DNA of 64,000 nt from Oceanicaulis sp. MMSF_3324 (GTDB lineage Bacteria; Pseudomonadota; Alphaproteobacteria; Caulobacterales; Maricaulaceae): NCBI RefSeq assembly GCF_030733545.1, contig NZ_JASHIU010000001.1, positions 310,001 through 374,000 of the forward strand. The letters are read 5' to 3'. A program made the translations under genes and the position numbers. Positions 538-28,095 of the stretch are shown one piece after another. The notes beneath the pieces are model-generated. The model had not been told where the DNA came from, ran no database searches, and saw only the letters and a program-made list of their open reading frames with translations. How positions within the stretch are numbered: position 1 is the stretch's first letter; every line of letters starts with the position of its first letter.

Positions 538-632
538 GTGGGTATCACAGAAATCCACTCTACCCATAAAAATTGATTGACCGGTCAGCGCGTTTCATTA
601 ATGTGGGTATATCGGATATCGGACTTACCCAC
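538..632. promoter_or_regulatory. Duplicated inverted-repeat operator
   Basis: GTGGGTA at 538-544 faces TACCCAT at 561-567, and GTGGGTA at 603-609 faces TACCCAC at 626-632. Arm-to-arm distance is 23 bases in both pairs and the pairs are 65 bases apart. The second pair ends ten bases before the ATG at 642. Repeated, equally spaced inverted heptamers just ahead of a start codon suggest binding sites for a dimeric repressor. RNA hairpins are a less likely reading because the loops are long. Confidence 0.55.
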
Positions 633-641
633 AGGAAAATC

Positions 642-1724
642 ATGGTAACGCTACGCGATGAATTTCATACCCGGCTTGAAGAGTTCAGGGATGTTTACTG
701 TTTCTATGAGCAAGATGAGGTCATTCGTTCTCTGGCTGTAACTGGAGAAATACTTGACCTCGTCTTCGTAGGAGATGAGGCCGCCATGGCTATGGCGCTT
801 CTAGCTAAGATCATCAGTAAAGGAACGGCCGACAGCTGGGATCGTCTCAAGTTGAGCGAGACGAGGCCGGATCAGAACTGGCGAGAAACTTGGGCTGAGA
901 TCGATGGTTGGGATTCCAGCTCCACTCCGCCTTTTCTCGATGAGCTCCATGAGCTTAGCGCGTTTGCCAACTACGGAATCATGACGATTTGGGATATCCA
1001 AGAGGATGCGCATGATTACCTGGAGGTCAGGCATCTGAAGGAGAGAATGGCTGATGCGAAGAACCCGCCTAAGTGGGTTCAAAAAGTCTGCTCAAAGATC
1101 GAGCGGTTCGAAGCGCTTGTCGGTTCTGTCGAGGGTAAAACGAAGCTCGAATACCTTCCCGCGCTCAGGGAGCAAGCCCTGGCTCGTGTGAAGCTTGATG
1201 GAGGCGAGCCGCTAACAGTCAGTGAGCTGGCAGTACTATCAGGCGTTTCCATGAAGCGTCTCCAGAATGCGATCTATGCTCAAAGTGAAGGGGCGCCTAC
1301 GGTTTCAAAAGGCGGATTAATAGCTCCTGAGGCTTGCGCTCGATGGCTGAACGAGCGCGATTACCGATGGTCGATTTGGCAGGATATTGTCGCGGAATAT
1401 CCCCTTAAGGCGAATTGGGGGGAGAGCACAGAGCTCTCGCCGCATGATGCTCTTAAGGAGCATGAGGATTACCTTTTCGTGCCAGTCGCTTTGGATGGGT
1501 CGGTTTTTTCGCCCGATCTTGGTAGCGGGCCTTCCGGTCAACAATTTCGAGTTGGGCCTAAGGGCGAAGAGGTAAACGTTGAAGGTTTCGAAGAGGCTCT
1601 CCAACGCCTAACCAAGATGGAAACGCCTCGTTGGCGTCGTCCTAATCCTGAGAGCGGACGTTTGGGGATCGTATCGGGGCAGTCTTGGAAGCGAGTTCGT
1701 CGTTCTGAATTGGAGGTGCGTTGA
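642..1724 (+). CDS. Unknown island protein with central HTH-like segment
   Basis: This is the first gene of a three-gene unit. The ATG at 642 is preceded by AGGA at 633-636. The longer frame opens with a TTG at 573 that has no ribosome site and would place the duplicated operator inside the coding region, so I choose 642 (360 aa). Residues about 189-212 (LTVSELAVLSGVSMKRL) look like a helix-turn-helix. The C-terminal quarter has a distinctive segment with VGPKGEEV, ALQRL and PRWRRPN, which looks like a conserved domain, but I cannot name it. There is no signal peptide or membrane segment. The stop shares its last base with the ATG of the next gene, so translation is probably coupled. A DNA-binding or sensor role is inference only. 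Confidence 0.65.
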   Translation: MVTLRDEFHTRLEEFRDVYCFYEQDEVIRSLAVTGEILDLVFVGDEAAMAMALLAKIISKGTADSWDRLKLSETRPDQNWRETWAEIDGWDSSSTPPFLDELHELSAFANYGIMTIWDIQEDAHDYLEVRHLKERMADAKNPPKWVQKVCSKIERFEALVGSVEGKTKLEYLPALREQALARVKLDGGEPLTVSELAVLSGVSMKRLQNAIYAQSEGAPTVSKGGLIAPEACARWLNERDYRWSIWQDIVAEYPLKANWGESTELSPHDALKEHEDYLFVPVALDGSVFSPDLGSGPSGQQFRVGPKGEEVNVEGFEEALQRLTKMETPRWRRPNPESGRLGIVSGQSWKRVRRSELEVR

Positions 1725-2002
1725 TGAATCAAGATCATCTGAAGACCCCGATGACGCACCATGCTGAGCGTAGGAGTGTAGATCGCAACATCCCGGAGAT
1801 CGCGCGTTGGCTCTTGCTTGATTATGGAAGGCGTCAGCCCGCCGGTGGCGGTAGCACTCGATACGATTTCGATAAGCGATCTTGGAAAGAGGTGGAGCGG
1901 TTTTTTGGTCGCTGGCGACTCAAGGAAATGACTCAATTAAGAAATTCGTACCTGATCCAAAGTCAGGACGGCGCAATTATTACAGTGGCATACAGAGACT
2001 AA
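1724..2002 (+). CDS. Small DUF4258-like protein
   Basis: This 92-residue protein starts at the ATG at 1724, with GGAGG at 1712-1716. A TTG three bases earlier is too close to that ribosome site. The pattern fits small DUF4258-like proteins: an early THHAERR-x(n)-R-x-IP stretch, a middle segment with a GR/GG turn, and a C-terminal IITVAYR strand. DUF4258 members are often compared with RelE/BrnT-fold toxins, but I see no catalytic signature that proves toxicity here. It shares one base with the upstream gene, and the downstream gene begins one base after its stop, so the three genes are probably translated together. It could be a toxin, a small nucleic-acid-binding subunit or a regulator. Confidence 0.6.
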   Translation: MNQDHLKTPMTHHAERRSVDRNIPEIARWLLLDYGRRQPAGGGSTRYDFDKRSWKEVERFFGRWRLKEMTQLRNSYLIQSQDGAIITVAYRD

Positions 2003-2003
2003 A

Positions 2004-2768
2004 ATGTATCAACAATATATCGACATTATTAAGTCACACATTAGACAGGGCTCTCTTATCGAAAACATTGAAGCTGATCTTACGCTGTATGAAGACGGGC
2101 GTCTTCGAGCGGAGTATGCACCCTTTGATTATGTCGAGAGGAGTGCACGGGTTGTGATAGTTGGCCTTACCCCAGGCCGACAACAGGCCCGTAATGCTTT
2201 GAGGGCGTTGATTGAAGCTTTGCAGGGTGGTGCGAATGTCGAAGTCGCTCTTGAAGTGGCGAAAAAGACCGGAAGCTTCAGCGGGCCGCTTCGGCGTAAT
2301 TTGACTGCAATGCTCGATCACATTGGGGTCAATACGCTTTTAGGCGTTCAATCTGCTGAGCAGCTTTTTGATGAAGAAGCTCGTGGCGCACATTTTACTT
2401 CAGCTTTGAGGTATCCCGTGTTCGTTAACGGGGAGAATTACAGCGGAGCGCCAAAGCCTCTGGGTGTTCCGGCGCTGAAGTCAATGATTGAAACGTATCT
2501 AGCTGAGGAGACGGCGATTCTAGATCGAGCGATCTGGATACCACTCGGCACTCACGCATCAGATGCTTTGTTGCACTTGGTTGCTTCCGGAGCATTGGAT
2601 CGTGACCGCGTATTGGCTGGACTACCCCACCCCAGCGGGGCAAATGCGGAAAGGGTGGCTTACTTTTTGAATCGTAAGGGACGCGATGAGCTTTCCCGAA
2701 AGACTCGTCCAGAATCAATCGAGCAGGCGCGTGAACAGCTTAAGGGGCAAATTGCCAAACTCAGCTGA
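2004..2768 (+). CDS. Uracil-DNA-glycosylase-superfamily-like protein
   Basis: This 254-residue protein carries two blocks typical of the UDG superfamily. A first-strand motif VVIVGLTPG lies at residues 50-58, where family members bind the substrate and activate water. A late LPHPSGAN lies at 207-214, matching the HPS-type motif that inserts into DNA. A strand with IWIPLGTHA at 178-185 sits between them, as in SMUG/family-4-like folds. I see no four-cysteine iron-sulfur cluster. Known members excise uracil or modified bases; some island-borne relatives act in phage defence. It starts one base after the preceding stop and is the last gene of the unit. Substrate and activity are unknown, and the usual acidic residue of motif A is not evident. 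Confidence 0.65.
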   Translation: MYQQYIDIIKSHIRQGSLIENIEADLTLYEDGRLRAEYAPFDYVERSARVVIVGLTPGRQQARNALRALIEALQGGANVEVALEVAKKTGSFSGPLRRNLTAMLDHIGVNTLLGVQSAEQLFDEEARGAHFTSALRYPVFVNGENYSGAPKPLGVPALKSMIETYLAEETAILDRAIWIPLGTHASDALLHLVASGALDRDRVLAGLPHPSGANAERVAYFLNRKGRDELSRKTRPESIEQAREQLKGQIAKLS

Positions 2769-2858: not shown

Positions 2859-2892
2859 GGTTCGAGTGCGGACAATCTTCTCCTGGGCACCA
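2859..2892 (+). other. tRNA-Leu 3'-end remnant, probable island att site
   Basis: CTTCTCCTGGGCACCA at 2877-2892 looks like the 3' strand of a tRNA: five T-stem bases, the acceptor strand CCTGGGC, a discriminator A and CCA. Its complement GCCCAGG is a typical 5' end of tRNA-Leu. A T-loop-like GGTTCGAGT lies at 2859-2867, but nine unrelated bases separate it from the rest and no cloverleaf can be built. A truncated 3' end followed by a host terminator is what an element integrated into a tRNA 3' end leaves at its far side. The intact tRNA and an integrase would then lie left of the window. Confidence 0.5.
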
Positions 2893-2916
2893 TCCTTCCT
2901 TCCAAGGATGATCGAG

Positions 2917-2969: not shown

Positions 2970-3434
2970 TCAGCCCCCGGCGCACTGCGCCTTTTTCAGC
3001 GCTTCATTGCGCAGATGACCCAACGCCTCGATCCAGGGTTTGAGATCCACATCCGCTTCGCTGGCCATGGCGTGCACGCAGGCCAAGGCGTCCGAGGCCT
3101 GCCCCTGCAGGGCGCGGCCCTGATCGGTCAGGCGGATGCGCACCACGCGTTCGTCCTTGGGGTCGCGCGTGCGCGTGAGATGGCCCATCCCCTCCAGGCG
3201 TTTGAGGAGCGGGGTCAGGGTGTTGGTGTCCAGAAACAGGCGCTTGCCCAGCGCCCCGACGGTGACATCGTCTTTTTCCCACAGCGCCAGAAGCGCGATG
3301 TATTGCGGATAGGTCAGGCCCAGCTTGTTCAGATAAGGCCGATACATGCGGTTGATCGCCGTGTTCGCCGAATAGATCGCAAAGCACAGCTGATCATCCA
3401 GTGTGGCGAGATCGGGCGTATGGGGCGCACTCAT
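2970..3434 (-). CDS. ohrR: OhrR, MarR-family organic-peroxide sensor
   Basis: A MarR-type winged-helix repressor of 154 aa. The start at 3434 has AGGGAC upstream; a longer frame to 3467 lacks a better site. The N-terminal LDDQLCFAIYSAN holds the reactive cysteine (C17) of OhrR proteins, oxidised by organic hydroperoxides to release DNA. C119 and C151 are candidates for the second, disulfide-forming cysteine of two-Cys OhrRs. The wing has TRTRDPKDERVVRIRLT, the usual MarR DNA-contacting hairpin. The gene is divergent from ohr across a 114-bp spacer containing an AT-rich palindrome, the standard arrangement for autoregulation and ohr repression. Family and context agree, so confidence is high. 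Confidence 0.92.
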   Translation of the reverse strand: MSAPHTPDLATLDDQLCFAIYSANTAINRMYRPYLNKLGLTYPQYIALLALWEKDDVTVGALGKRLFLDTNTLTPLLKRLEGMGHLTRTRDPKDERVVRIRLTDQGRALQGQASDALACVHAMASEADVDLKPWIEALGHLRNEALKKAQCAGG

Positions 3435-3500
3435 CGTCAGGTCCCTTCGAATAATCGCACACGACAATATCGTTACGTCTTGACGACGACAAGCGCATGA

Positions 3501-3532
3501 TTATATCGCGTACCGTTATATCGCACGCGATA
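3501..3532. promoter_or_regulatory. Probable OhrR operator
   Basis: TATCGC at 3519-3524 and GCGATA at 3527-3532 form a palindrome. A second related half-site (TATATCGCGTAC) begins at 3502. They lie in the ohrR-ohr spacer, immediately ahead of the ohr ribosome site. OhrR is known to bind AT-rich dyads in this position; assignment to this protein is inference. Confidence 0.6.
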
Positions 3533-3548
3533 AATAAGGAGCGATCTC

Positions 3549-3968
3549 ATGTCCATTCTCTACACCGCCCGCGCCAGCGCGAACAAAGGCCGCCAGGGCC
3601 GCGCCTGGTCTGATGACGACCGGCTGGATGTCCAGCTGTCCACCCCGTCCGAGCTGGGGGGTGATGGCGGTTCCGGCACCAATCCCGAGCAATTGTTCGC
3701 AGCGGGCTATGCCGCCTGCTTCATGAGCGCGATGGGCCTGGTGGCGCAGCAGGACAAGATCACGCTGCCCGAGGATGCGAAAGTGGACGCCGAGGTCGGG
3801 ATCGGCCCGCGTGACGCGGGCGGGTATGGCCTGGAAGTGACGCTGATCGGGCATCTGCCCGGACTCGACACCGAACAGGCCAATGCCTTGATGGCGAAGA
3901 CCGAGCAGGTCTGCCCCTATTCCAACGCGACCCGCGGCAATGTGAAAACCACGCTCAAGCTGGGATAG
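3549..3968 (+). CDS. ohr: Ohr organic hydroperoxide reductase
   Basis: A 139-residue OsmC/Ohr-fold thiol peroxidase that reduces fatty-acid and alkyl hydroperoxides in the cytoplasm, usually with lipoylated proteins as reductant. The two catalytic cysteines are C57 (AAGYAACFMSA) and C122 (VCPYSNATRGN), both in the Ohr contexts rather than the OsmC ones. The basic residue in NKGRQGRAW and the Glu in NPEQLF (E47) match the active-site Arg/Glu pair of the family. Length is normal. An AAGGAG-type ribosome site lies just upstream. Divergent pairing with ohrR supports peroxide induction. Confidence 0.95.
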   Translation: MSILYTARASANKGRQGRAWSDDDRLDVQLSTPSELGGDGGSGTNPEQLFAAGYAACFMSAMGLVAQQDKITLPEDAKVDAEVGIGPRDAGGYGLEVTLIGHLPGLDTEQANALMAKTEQVCPYSNATRGNVKTTLKLG

Positions 3969-4119: not shown

Positions 4120-4734
4120 ATGACCATTCACTTCCATCGCGGGGATCTGCCGGACGGCCTGGACCTGGGCAAGCGGGTCGCGATCGACACCGAAACCCAA
4201 GGGCTGTCGCTGGTGCGCGATGGGTTGTGCCTGGTCCAGCTCTCGGCCGGCGATGGCGACGCCCATATCGTCCAGCCGGACCGGTCCACCTATGACTGTC
4301 CCAATCTCAAGGCGCTGCTGGCCGATACGAGTGTCGAAAAGCTCTTGCACTTCGCCCGCTTCGATCTGGCGATCATCGAGCGCGATCTCGGCGTGACCAT
4401 GACGCCGGTCTATTGCACCAAGATCGCGTCCAAGCTGGTGCGCACCTATACTGATCGCCATGGGCTCAAGGAAGTCTGTCGCGAGATCGCCGGGGTCGAG
4501 CTGTCCAAGCAGCAGCAAAGTTCGGACTGGGCAGCTTACGATCTGAGCGAGGCGCAGCTCAACTATGCGGCCTCCGACGTCCTGTACCTGCACGCCATCG
4601 CGGATGGTCTGTCCGCCATGCTTGAGCGCGAGGGCCGCGTGGAAATCGCACAGGCCTGTTTCGAGTTCCTGCCTCAGCGGGCGCGGCTTGATCTGATGGG
4701 CTGGGATGAAACCGACATCTTCGCCCACTCCTGA
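4120..4734 (+). CDS. rnd: Ribonuclease D-type 3'-5' exonuclease
   Basis: A DEDDy exonuclease of 204 aa, the short single-domain form found in alphaproteobacteria without the HRDC domains of enterobacterial RNase D. Exo I is AIDTETQGL (metal-binding D and E), Exo II is HFARFDLAII, and Exo III is YAASDVLYLH with the defining Tyr. It would trim tRNA and other small-RNA 3' ends. The ATG at 4120 has GGAG at 4109-4112; a TTG at 4099 is upstream of that site and is rejected. It opens the conserved alphaproteobacterial order rnd-lptC-lptA-lptB-rpoN-hpf-ptsN. Confidence 0.9.
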   Translation: MTIHFHRGDLPDGLDLGKRVAIDTETQGLSLVRDGLCLVQLSAGDGDAHIVQPDRSTYDCPNLKALLADTSVEKLLHFARFDLAIIERDLGVTMTPVYCTKIASKLVRTYTDRHGLKEVCREIAGVELSKQQQSSDWAAYDLSEAQLNYAASDVLYLHAIADGLSAMLEREGRVEIAQACFEFLPQRARLDLMGWDETDIFAHS

Positions 4735-4804
4735 GCCTGCTTGCGCGCAGCGGCGATGACGGCCACAAAGGTTAGTTCACAATTCTGCTTCGGAGCCCGC
4801 CTGC

Positions 4805-5530
4805 ATGTCTGCGGCCCTGACTTTCTCAGACGGTCACATGATTGGCCAGCGCCGCGCCAAGTCGCTGGCGTCGGCGCGCTCGCGCTCGCGCTTTGTGGCT
4901 GGTCTGCGTCTTGTGCTGATTGCCGCGGGCGTTCTTGTGGCGCTCAACGCGCTGGTTCAGATCGTATTGACGGGGGGTCGCAACGGCTCAGCGCCTGAGA
5001 TCGCCCTGAGTGCGAGTGCTGGCGAGTCCGAACGCATCATCAATCCGCGGTTTACCGGTCGGGACGAGGGCGGCACGCCCTATGTCATCACCGCTGACAC
5101 CGCAGAACGTCGGTCGGGCGCCGAGCAGGCCCTGATCGATCTTGAGCAACCCGCGCTGGATTATGCGCTTCTGGATGACGGGGCGGATGCCTCCCGGGTG
5201 CTGGCCCAGCATGGCGTGTTCGATGACGCCAGCCTGTCCTTGCATCTTGAAACCGATGTGCGCCTGACAACCCGCTCGGGCTATGTCTTTGATACCCAGG
5301 CGGCCACGCTGTATTTGCGTGAAGGCGTGGTGGTCGGACCGGAGCCGGTCCACGGTCTGGCGCCCTGGGGCGCCGTGCGCGCAGATCAGTTTGAAGTGCG
5401 CGAGGACGGCCAGCATGTCATCTTACGCGGTGACGTCCGCACGCGCTTCAATGCGCCGGGATCCGCCGATGCGTCCACCCATTCCAATTCTGACGCCGGC
5501 GCGGTCCGGTCAGAGGAGAACGAGCCATGA
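4805..5530 (+). CDS. lptC: LPS export protein LptC
   Basis: A bitopic inner-membrane protein of 241 aa that takes lipopolysaccharide from the LptBFG transporter and passes it to LptA. A basic N-terminus is followed by one membrane segment at about residues 34-57 (LRLVLIAAGVLVALNALVQI). The periplasmic part has the beta-rich LptC pattern with NPRFTGRDEGGTPYVITAD and a late QFEVREDGQHVILRGDV. The tail after about 215 is acidic and Ser-rich. GGAG at about 4793 supports the ATG at 4805. Its stop overlaps lptA by four bases. Sequence identity in this family is low, so identification leans on the operon. Confidence 0.85.
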   Translation: MSAALTFSDGHMIGQRRAKSLASARSRSRFVAGLRLVLIAAGVLVALNALVQIVLTGGRNGSAPEIALSASAGESERIINPRFTGRDEGGTPYVITADTAERRSGAEQALIDLEQPALDYALLDDGADASRVLAQHGVFDDASLSLHLETDVRLTTRSGYVFDTQAATLYLREGVVVGPEPVHGLAPWGAVRADQFEVREDGQHVILRGDVRTRFNAPGSADASTHSNSDAGAVRSEENEP

Positions 5531-26925: not shown

Positions 26926-28095
26926 CTAGACCCTGAGATTCACGCCGCTCTGGGCGATTTCCTGCGGGGTCACGGCGTTATCAAGGTTGTTATCCAGCGG
27001 TTGGCTGACCTGCCTGACGCGCTGAGGCTCCTGAGCGGTCTCGCTCAGCCGATCCACGAGTGAGGGGGTCGGATCGGTCTGGCTGAGCCCGTTATCACGG
27101 GTGGAGAGCCCGCTGTCCGCGCGGTCGAACCGCGTTTCAAACCGGGTATTGGGCGTTGTCACTTCGGCATCCACATCGCCGATGCTGGCTCCGGTTTCAG
27201 GCCGTGTGACGGCGGCGGGTCCGGTCTCGTCAGCTTCCAGAGGCTCATCGGGTCGTGGCGCGATCTCGGCGCGCAGCGTTGCGGTTTCCTCAGGCTCTTG
27301 CGCCTGTTCCAGCGCGGCCGTGGTCGGGTTCACCTCCTGGGCGGCCCGGGCGGCGGCGTTCAGGCCGTCATCAGACGGGTCCTCGGATTGTTGCGCAGGG
27401 GCTTCAGGACGGGTGTTCAGTTCAGCGTCACGCGGACTGTCTGCGGGCTCGGCCCGGTTCAGATTGTCATCGATCCGACTATCGAGCCGCTGGTCCTGAC
27501 GTGCGCCGGCGTCTTCACGCTGGGCCTCGCGGATCGTCTCGGTTTGCTGGCGGCCCTCTTCAATCACGGTGCGGGTCTGATCGGCGCGCTGCTCACGCGT
27601 CTCCAGTTCATCAGACCGGGCCTGACGCTGTAGCGTTTCCGCCTGCTGCGCCTCGCTCAACCGGGCGGCAATGCTGGGCTCTTGGGCATCAACGGGCTGC
27701 GCCGGCGCCGGCGCCGTCTCAGCGCGCGCTTCAGGCGGCTCCGGCGTCTCGGCCGGTTCACGGGTCGGCTGGGGCGGTTCCTGGGAACGCGTGGCCAGAC
27801 GCTGCTCCTGCACCTCCAGAAGCACGGCATTGGTGGAGGCGTTCAAGCGATCCTGGCTGGCTTGCGCAAACCCTTCCGCCGCGGCGGAGCGGGTCGGCGT
27901 TTCCTCTTCGGAGGACCGGTTCTGCGCCGCGCCGCGATCCTGCCGATCCTGGGCGCTGTCAGCCCGTTCCACAGGCCGGACGGCCGCGGCATCGCTGGCG
28001 GCGGTGGAATTGATCAGAGCGGGATCGGACTCACGGGGCGGGGTCCGGTACAGATCAGCCAGATAACCCACTCCACTTGCAATATCGGCGACCAT
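26926..28095 (-). CDS. Large disordered Gln/Glu/Arg-rich protein
   Basis: A 389-residue protein with almost no hydrophobic core. From about residue 25 to 360 it is dominated by Gln, Glu, Ala, Arg, Asp, Thr and Pro, and predicted by eye to be disordered with charged helical stretches (about 140-190). Short ordered-looking ends remain: VADIASGVGYLADLY at the start and VTPQEIAQSGVNLRV at the end. The ATG at 28095 has AGAGG six bases upstream. There is no signal peptide. The ends resemble the style of small motility-associated or FliK-like proteins, but this is weak. Length and composition suggest a spacer, ruler or adaptor; I cannot assign it. Confidence 0.65.
   Translation of the reverse strand: MVADIASGVGYLADLYRTPPRESDPALINSTAASDAAAVRPVERADSAQDRQDRGAAQNRSSEEETPTRSAAAEGFAQASQDRLNASTNAVLLEVQEQRLATRSQEPPQPTREPAETPEPPEARAETAPAPAQPVDAQEPSIAARLSEAQQAETLQRQARSDELETREQRADQTRTVIEEGRQQTETIREAQREDAGARQDQRLDSRIDDNLNRAEPADSPRDAELNTRPEAPAQQSEDPSDDGLNAAARAAQEVNPTTAALEQAQEPEETATLRAEIAPRPDEPLEADETGPAAVTRPETGASIGDVDAEVTTPNTRFETRFDRADSGLSTRDNGLSQTDPTPSLVDRLSETAQEPQRVRQVSQPLDNNLDNAVTPQEIAQSGVNLRV

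What the first reader, a model, noticed from the sequence alone, without database searches (positions are those of the whole stretch)
642..2768. Island operon with a UDG-superfamily protein: candidate undescribed system
Three genes are coupled by a one-base overlap and a one-base gap. They encode an unknown protein with a central HTH-like segment, a DUF4258-like small protein, and a protein with UDG-type GLTPG and LPHPSGAN blocks. They lie in low-GC DNA ending at a tRNA-type attachment remnant, with a duplicated operator in front. Glycosylases that attack modified phage DNA are known, so a defence role is plausible. The three-gene combination is unfamiliar to me. Function is inference.
Basis: partly seen in the sequence, partly recalled or inferred. 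Interest (0 to 1): 0.75.

Follow-up and report, generated by a model that had tools for sequence, protein, structure and literature searches.

The report
Toxin-antitoxin-like pair with a DNA glycosylase
Three bacterial genes that often travel together on plasmids and mobile islands encode a base-removing DNA enzyme plus a toxin-antitoxin-like control pair, probably a virus defence that strips unusual bases from invading DNA, though no activity has been tested.

Summary
Window 642-2768 encodes three tightly coupled genes: A (P1, central HTH), B (P2, DUF4258-like) and C (P3, uracil-DNA-glycosylase superfamily). They end a tRNA-Leu-integrated island that also carries a Type ISP restriction-modification enzyme and a GmrSD-type protein.

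The trio is conserved: 43 of 80 related genome loci carry A, B and C together, mostly as A-B-C (21) or B-C-A (21); 19 have C alone. In a class sample of 385 genomes C occurs in 3, all with the trio. The duplicated operator is a TGGG-N20-CCCA palindrome pair, kept before A in three relatives.

C is modelled at pLDDT 96; its first 34 PDB matches are UDG-type enzymes, though remote (best E 0.004). The host has three other UDGs. Two pocket positions are invariantly Thr and Ser, suggesting another substrate. DUF4258 is listed in print among RelE/ParE-type toxins, so A-B resembles a toxin-antitoxin pair.

Best reading: a Brig-like base-excision immunity gene wired to a self-regulating toxin-antitoxin-like pair. 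Defence, substrate and toxicity are inferred. Brig1-3 make the principle known; I saw the three-gene unit in no paper my searches listed.

The parts
539..566 (.). Operator O1, TGGGTA-N16-TACCCA palindrome, 103 bp upstream of the A start
   Evidence: same kind of pair before A in L020, L022, L028
577..604 (+). Sigma-70-like promoter TTGACC-N16-TAATGT lying between O1 and O2
   Evidence: pattern match in the window only; the same pattern was not found in L020, L022 or L028; inference
604..631 (.). Operator O2, TGGGTA-N16-TACCCA palindrome, overlapping the end of the promoter-like site
642..1724 (+). Gene A (P1, 360 aa): helical N-terminal part, central HTH, beta-rich C-terminal domain (FVPV..GPKG..WRRPN); likely autoregulator and antitoxin-like partner
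1724..2002 (+). Gene B (P2, 92 aa): DUF4258-like, RelE/ParE-superfamily-like small protein; H13, R21, T87 invariant in 39 of 39 aligned members
2004..2768 (+). Gene C (P3, 254 aa): UDG-superfamily DNA glycosylase, motifs GLTPG (54-58) and LPHPSGAN (207-214); T56, F92, S133, H209 invariant in 55 of 55 aligned members
2876..2893 (.). attR: 18-bp repeat of the tRNA-Leu(CAG) 3' end; right border of the island

Best explanation
The unit is an anti-invader base-excision module. C is a UDG-superfamily glycosylase whose pocket no longer fits uracil in the usual way; it flips out and removes a non-canonical base from phage (or other incoming) DNA, leaving abasic sites that stop replication, as Brig1 and Brig3 do. 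A and B form a toxin-antitoxin-like pair: A (HTH) binds the two TGGG-N20-CCCA operators that flank the promoter and holds its own operon down; B (DUF4258, BECR-toxin-like) is A's partner and either modulates repression or acts as a second effector when A is lost during infection. Shown here: gene structure, conservation of the trio, predicted UDG fold, operator conservation, island setting. Inferred: DNA binding by A, toxicity of B, the base removed by C, defence.
For: Trio conservation: of 80 genome loci 43 ABC, 15 AC, 3 BC, 19 C only; 6 of 15 plasmid loci ABC; orders A-B-C 21, B-C-A 21, B-A-C 1. Class sample: C in 3 of 385, B in 12 of 385; in all 3 C genomes the B match lies within 30 bp of C, and the two besides the window's own also have A. 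B in 24 of 40 C-bearing genomes, in at least one of them (G401) not adjacent to C. C fold: pLDDT 96.0, pTM 0.91; the first 34 PDB matches are UdgX, SMUG1, family-4, TDG or UNG-type glycosylases. Accessory: 2 of 61 relatives, none of 14 other genomes of the genus; own genome has three other PF03167 enzymes. No match in 50,697 phage records at E 1e-5. Defence setting: own island carries a Type ISP R-M enzyme (PF18135 4.3e-107) and a GmrSD_N protein (PF03235 6.4e-25); 147 neighbour proteins hit 120 PADLOC families against 25 for 125 control proteins. Operator pair conserved before A in L020, L022, L028. DUF4258 listed as a BECR-fold TA toxin family with antitoxin-upstream order (PMC11980606, passages).
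Against: No activity is shown. 19 of 80 genome loci, 6 of 15 plasmid loci and 6 of 9 viral-contig loci have C without A or B in reach, so A and B may not be needed (some loci are cut near C, and the profiles may miss distant partners). A-B occurs without C (L113, L172) and B with other HTH proteins (L117, L118, L121, L173), so the pair may be an independent module. P2 itself has no DUF4258 match at E 1. No PDB match of C reaches E 0.001; best 3.8e-3, TM 0.31-0.47 over the first 34. Brig1 and Brig3 sequences were not compared. The two-site operator was found only in the four close A-B-C loci; a fifth locus, L054 (C only), has one site, probably chance. PADLOC numbers are family counts, and the control also holds some defence families (ShosA, PsyrT/A, mad3, BrxHI). 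Nine viral contigs encode C relatives, two of them over short stretches only.
Confidence: 0.58

Rival explanations
1. An addiction or stability module of mobile elements: A is antitoxin, B an RNase-type toxin, and C an accessory that attacks or repairs DNA of cells that lose the element; no phage defence.
For: C relatives match 35 plasmid records, 19 of them over at least 80% of C, and lie on tRNA-adjacent islands; DUF4258 is listed as a TA toxin family; A-B pairs exist without C.
Against: C occurs with neither A nor B at 19 of 80 genome loci, and it lies among defence systems, in the window's island with a GmrSD-type protein and a Type ISP enzyme.
Confidence: 0.2
2. A horizontally moved repair enzyme: C removes uracil or deaminated bases from element DNA during transfer or replication, with A-B merely regulating it.
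For: Predicted UDG fold with H209-P-S motif; found on plasmids, three of the 15 fetched being typed conjugative.
Against: The host already has three other PF03167 enzymes; T56 and S133 stand where uracil-acting families usually have other residues, invariantly (family roles partly recalled, motif 2 placed by eye); defence-rich neighbourhood.
Confidence: 0.12
3. A, B and C share an operon only because islands collect cargo; the three act independently (A-B one TA module, C a solo Brig-like gene).
For: C-only and A-B-only loci exist.
Against: Two equally common gene orders with short gaps or overlaps at most junctions (seven of the gaps listed exceed 280 bases), and 3 of 3 class-sample genomes with C keeping A and B, are hard to explain by chance gathering.
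Confidence: 0.1

Closest known systems
Brig1 / Brig3 (with BapA), anti-phage DNA glycosylases (PMC11078745, passages; PMC13160076, outline, sections 8 and 11 and passages); Brig2 only named there
   Same: UDG-superfamily fold, several-gene operon, defence islands. By motif spacing P3 T56-P57-G58-R59-x-Q61 lines up with the published Brig3 N50-P51-S52-R53-x-E55 (the paper lists Brig1 Q81 beside Brig3 E55), and A213-N214 recalls Brig3 A224-N225, the residue inserted into DNA (residues from the papers; my alignment by eye).
   Different: Thr and Ser at the places compared; partner genes are HTH and DUF4258-like proteins, not the ASCH-type BapA hydrolase. No Brig sequence was compared here.
Type II toxin-antitoxin modules with DUF4258 (PF14076) toxins (PMC11980606, passages)
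   Same: Small DUF4258-like protein directly downstream of, and overlapping, an HTH gene with a palindromic operator pair.
   Different: A is 360 aa, larger than a usual antitoxin (recalled), and a third gene, a glycosylase, is coupled to the pair.
Bacterial UDG families 4, 5 and UdgX
   Same: Fold, P-G after motif 1, aromatic F92, H-P-S motif 3.
   Different: A longer stretch between motifs 1 and 2 (77 residues, against 38 in the host family-4-like enzyme L109), T in motif 1, S for N in motif 2; mobile and rare.
Predicted UDG-containing system in DefensePredictor Fig. 6F (PMC13092281, legend section and passages)
   Same: A UDG domain predicted as defensive, untested there.
   Different: Only the legend was readable; whether it is this family or has A/B partners cannot be told.

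Membership tests
UDG superfamily (PF03167) | Profile match above the curated cut-off | tested here: met
   29.5 bits against 24.3; 27.3 bits in the genome search
UDG superfamily (PF03167) | UDG fold | tested here: met
   pLDDT 96.0; first 34 PDB matches are UDG-superfamily, 22 of the first 24 with probability 0.91 or more, but best E 3.8e-3 and TM 0.31-0.47
UDG superfamily (PF03167) | Motif 3 His-Pro-Ser | tested here: met
   H209 55 of 55, P210 54 of 55, S211 55 of 55
Uracil-acting UDG families 4/5 | Asn in motif 2 and the family's own motif 1 | tested here: not met
   S133 55 of 55 and T56 55 of 55; host family-4-like enzyme has GEAPG and N154. Motif 2 placement is by eye
Brig anti-phage glycosylases | Sequence homology to Brig1/Brig3 | not tested
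Brig anti-phage glycosylases | Excision of a modified phage base and phage protection | not testable with these tools
   needs bench work
Brig anti-phage glycosylases | Location among defence genes | tested here: met
   own island; 147 neighbours against 125 controls
DUF4258 TA toxin (PF14076) | Profile match | tested here: inconclusive
   P2 none at E 1; 16 of 39 family members match at E 0.1, best 5.5e-6
DUF4258 TA toxin (PF14076) | HTH antitoxin-type gene directly upstream, same operon | tested here: met
   one-base overlap in the window; A-B gap median -4 over 27 loci, with longest-ORF starts. In B-C-A loci A is not upstream of B
DUF4258 TA toxin (PF14076) | Toxicity neutralised by A; BECR fold | not tested

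The most novel reading that the evidence does not exclude
The trio is a new class of immunity: a DNA glycosylase under the control of, or armed by, a toxin-antitoxin pair, so that infection releases two blows, base excision from invader DNA by C and an RNase-type stop by B, with A as the sensor and switch. C would read a base modification not covered by Brig1-3.
Probability: 0.3. Interest if true: 0.8.

Novelty: new variant of a known kind. Interest (0 to 1): 0.62.

Why it matters
Base-excision immunity is a young field; the Brig papers I saw name three enzymes, Brig1-3. This would add a family found in many genomes (415 of 493 candidate stretches in one scan encode a relative), though rare in any one group (3 of 385 in the class sample), with a different pocket and a conserved regulatory or toxic pair, linking glycosylase defence to toxin-antitoxin systems. 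It gives a defined three-gene unit, invariant residues and an operator that can be tested directly in laboratory strains.

Tried and rejected
Searching genome contigs with P1 alone found no relative, so the second scan used the C alignment. NCBIfam gave nothing for the four proteins tried and PHROGs only weak, unnamed matches. PADLOC's only hit for the trio, AbiEi for C at E 0.0034 over 54 residues, was set aside as chance. Searches of solved-structure sequences gave no convincing relative of A, B or C (best E 1, 1.3, 0.2 and 0.033). A's model has no good whole-chain match in the PDB (best E 0.11); local Hint-like and BldC/RacA-type HTH matches are weak and not relied on. hhalign of C against host family-4-like UDGs aligned only motif 1 and the F-G segment, probability 15 percent, E 0.0017. 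The idea that C is mainly a phage gene was rejected (no match, 9 viral contigs). The P1 C-terminal domain also sits in an XRE-like protein on E. coli plasmids and in an exonuclease protein near a GQDPY-type UDG; a lead, not resolved. Rows dropped: 15 of 35 plasmid records were fetched; the tool kept the best 80 of 415 genome relatives; 26 of 64 long loci went into the neighbour test; 40 of 80 genome loci were handed; 15 of 20 control stretches asked for existed. Open reading frames in scripts start at the first ATG/GTG/TTG, so printed gaps lean towards overlaps. Some loci end close to C, so absence of A or B there is not certain.

Full report
WHAT IS THERE. Window 642-2768 holds three + strand genes. 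A (642-1724, 360 aa) ends in TGA whose A starts the ATG of B (1724-2002, 92 aa); one base separates B from C (2004-2768, 254 aa). Pfam names only C: UDG superfamily PF03167, E 9.2e-7, above its cut-off. GC is 0.512-0.531 over the first 3 kb and 0.585-0.687 in the 1-kb windows after it.

ISLAND. The window is G000:C11:310001-374000. Upstream DNA (L002) has an intact tRNA-Leu(CAG) at C11:299054-299140. Its 3' end, TCTTCTCCTGGGCACCAT (18 bases, the last one just past the gene), recurs at window 2876-2893. Between the two copies lie, in order: an integrase-like gene (Phage_integrase E 4e-5, below its cut-off), a 648-aa GmrSD_N protein (6.4e-25; PADLOC HEC-05 1.3e-40), a 1628-aa Type ISP restriction-modification enzyme (PF18135 4.3e-107), a resolvase, two genes without a Pfam match, and the trio at the right end (a few short open frames not counted). 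GmrSD is named with Brig1 and Brig3 as recognising modified phage DNA (PMC13160076, section 11), which makes the company telling. Relatives also lie near tRNAs: tRNA-Thr in L020, tRNA-Leu with a gene that reads like an integrase in L028, and tRNA-Ser beside an A-B pair in L113; L177, L178, L023 and L026 have none in the stretch scanned.

CONSERVATION OF THE TRIO. tblastn of C found 35 plasmid records, 19 with at least 80% of C covered; 15 were fetched. A profile of C with 11 plasmid relatives (A1) found 415 relatives among 493 candidate stretches of genome contigs, of which the best 80 were kept, and 9 viral contigs. I built profiles of A and B from the window and plasmid loci and searched open frames of 105 loci (window, 15 plasmid, 80 genome, 9 viral). 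Within 3.5 kb of C: genome loci 43 ABC, 15 AC, 3 BC, 19 C only; plasmids 6, 2, 1, 6; viral 2, 1, 0, 6; window ABC. Gene orders in genomes: A-B-C 21, B-C-A 21, B-A-C 1, A-C 14, reversed A 1, B-C 3, C 19. The C-A gap is -4 in 13 of 22 loci and the A-B median is -4 over 27; seven of the listed gaps exceed 280 bases. The loci were chosen by similarity of C, not by neighbours, but they include close kin (two pairs come from one genome each).

SAMPLE NOT CHOSEN BY C. In 385 genomes of the class, C occurs in 3 at E 1e-10 and B in 12 at E 1e-5. All three C genomes carry a B match within 30 bp of C, and the two besides the window's own also carry A (L122, L123). The chance that 3 random genomes all fall in the 12 is about 2e-5; leaving out the window's own genome, 2 of 2 gives about 8e-4 (my arithmetic). 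Within the relatives C is in 2 of 61 and in none of 14 other genomes of the genus. The own genome has three other PF03167 enzymes. No phage record of 50,697 matches C at E 1e-5.

PROTEIN C. AlphaFold2 with an alignment of 55 sequences gives pLDDT 96.0 and pTM 0.91. No PDB match passes E 0.001, but the first 34 are UdgX, SMUG1, family-4, TDG and UNG-type glycosylases, best E 3.8e-3, TM 0.31-0.47. The sequence alone finds no solved relative. In 55 sequences T56 (GLTPG), F92, S133 and H209 are invariant, Q61 is kept in 53 and N214 in 51. The host's family-4-like enzyme has GEAPG and, 38 residues after that A, the Asn of ITNVV; in C, T56 and S133 are 77 apart. In Brig3 the published N50 and D127 are also 77 apart, E55 reads the 5-hydroxymethyl group, and N225, after A224, enters the helix (PMC13160076, sections 8 and 11). 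C has Q61 and A213-N214 at the corresponding spots by motif spacing. This match is by eye from paper residues; no Brig sequence was aligned. I infer a glycosylase with a non-uracil pocket.

PROTEIN B. P2 has no Pfam match, but 16 of 39 family members match DUF4258 at E 0.1, best 5.5e-6. H13, R21 and T87 are invariant in 39 of 39. PMC11980606 (passages) lists DUF4258 among BECR-fold RelE/ParE-superfamily toxins, antitoxin gene first, activity unknown. Outside C loci, B lies behind HTH genes that read as XRE-type in L117, L118, L121 (no profile run on them) and an annotated HTH regulator in L173, and behind a P1-like A in L113 and L172. So HTH-B is a recurrent pair of its own.

PROTEIN A AND OPERATOR. 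A's model (pLDDT 84.8, pTM 0.68) has a helical N-terminal part, an HTH region and a beta-rich end; no good whole-chain match. The C-terminal domain type of P1 is found in 18 of 71 A proteins; in others XRE-type HTH models match instead (14 of 48 HTH_31). Two TGGGTA-N16-TACCCA palindromes stand 65 bp apart before A. A like pair with 58-63 bp spacing stands before A in Maricaulis L020, Hyphobacterium L022 and Hyphomonas L028 (one outer base differs in L022 and in L028), where A is 77, 62 and 45 percent identical to P1. Over 105 loci the 20-base spacer gives 7 exact hits (six in these four loci, one in the C-only locus L054), every other spacer from 8 to 31 gives 0-2; two sites in one region came up in 0 of 10,500 shuffles, at least one in 0.5 percent. 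The other trio loci lack the exact pattern in the region scanned. A promoter-like TTGACC-N16-TAATGT lies between the sites in the window only. This fits autoregulation by A in one lineage; binding is not shown.

DEFENCE NEIGHBOURHOOD. 147 neighbour proteins from 26 of 64 long genome loci hit 120 PADLOC families at E 1e-10 (Type I restriction, CBASS cyclase, DRT, AbiE, BREX A/B, PD-T4-1, Shos, Vsr and others among the 25 shown). 125 proteins from 15 arbitrary stretches of C-bearing genomes of the same set hit 25 families, 15 of them DpdF models, the rest including ShosA, PsyrT/A, mad3 and BrxHI. These are family counts, not protein counts. Seven of the 147 match phage integrase and two ADP-ribosylglycohydrolase; brig1 and brig3 were also found near such hydrolases.

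LITERATURE. Seven paper searches listed Brig1, Brig3, TA and other papers. None of the titles, abstract starts or passages that I saw describes an HTH-DUF4258-UDG operon; eight papers hold the word DUF4258, and I opened two of them by passage. DefensePredictor (PMC13092281, legend section and passages) names a UDG in a predicted, untested system that I could not identify. What genes a and b of the three-gene brig1 operon encode was not in the passages I saw. Brig2's own paper did not come up.

VERDICT. A real, conserved, mobile three-gene unit. Most likely a Brig-like base-excision defence coupled to a toxin-antitoxin-like regulator pair. New variant of a known kind; function untested.

Noticed in passing
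L002:8671-15511 (G000:C11:300671-307511), upstream of the window: GmrSD_N protein and single-chain Type ISP restriction-modification enzyme side by side in the same tRNA-Leu island.
   Followed up: partly
L117:7411-9363 and 4671-4994: A GmrSD-type protein 67 percent identical to the window island's one lies near an HTH plus DUF4258-like pair without C, so these parts mix between islands.
   Followed up: partly
L175:2779-4291 (E. coli plasmid): The P1 C-terminal domain is fused to an XRE-like HTH in front of a 292-aa protein that reads like a PD-(D/E)XK nuclease (my reading of the sequence, no profile run).
   Followed up: partly
L176:1-3219 (Alloyangia pacifica plasmid): An exonuclease-domain protein carrying the P1 C-terminal domain lies near a GQDPY-type UDG not matched by the C profile: a second link of this domain to glycosylases.
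   Followed up: partly
L015:4422-5386: C is split over two frames on a Pleomorphomonas plasmid; described only.
   Followed up: no
window 2970-3968: Downstream of the att remnant, a MarR-like regulator divergent from an Ohr/OsmC-like gene (named from recall of the sequences, no profile run); ordinary chromosome.
   Followed up: no
window 27001-28000: Strong AT skew (-0.316) with GC 0.687, out of line with the rest of the window.
   Followed up: no
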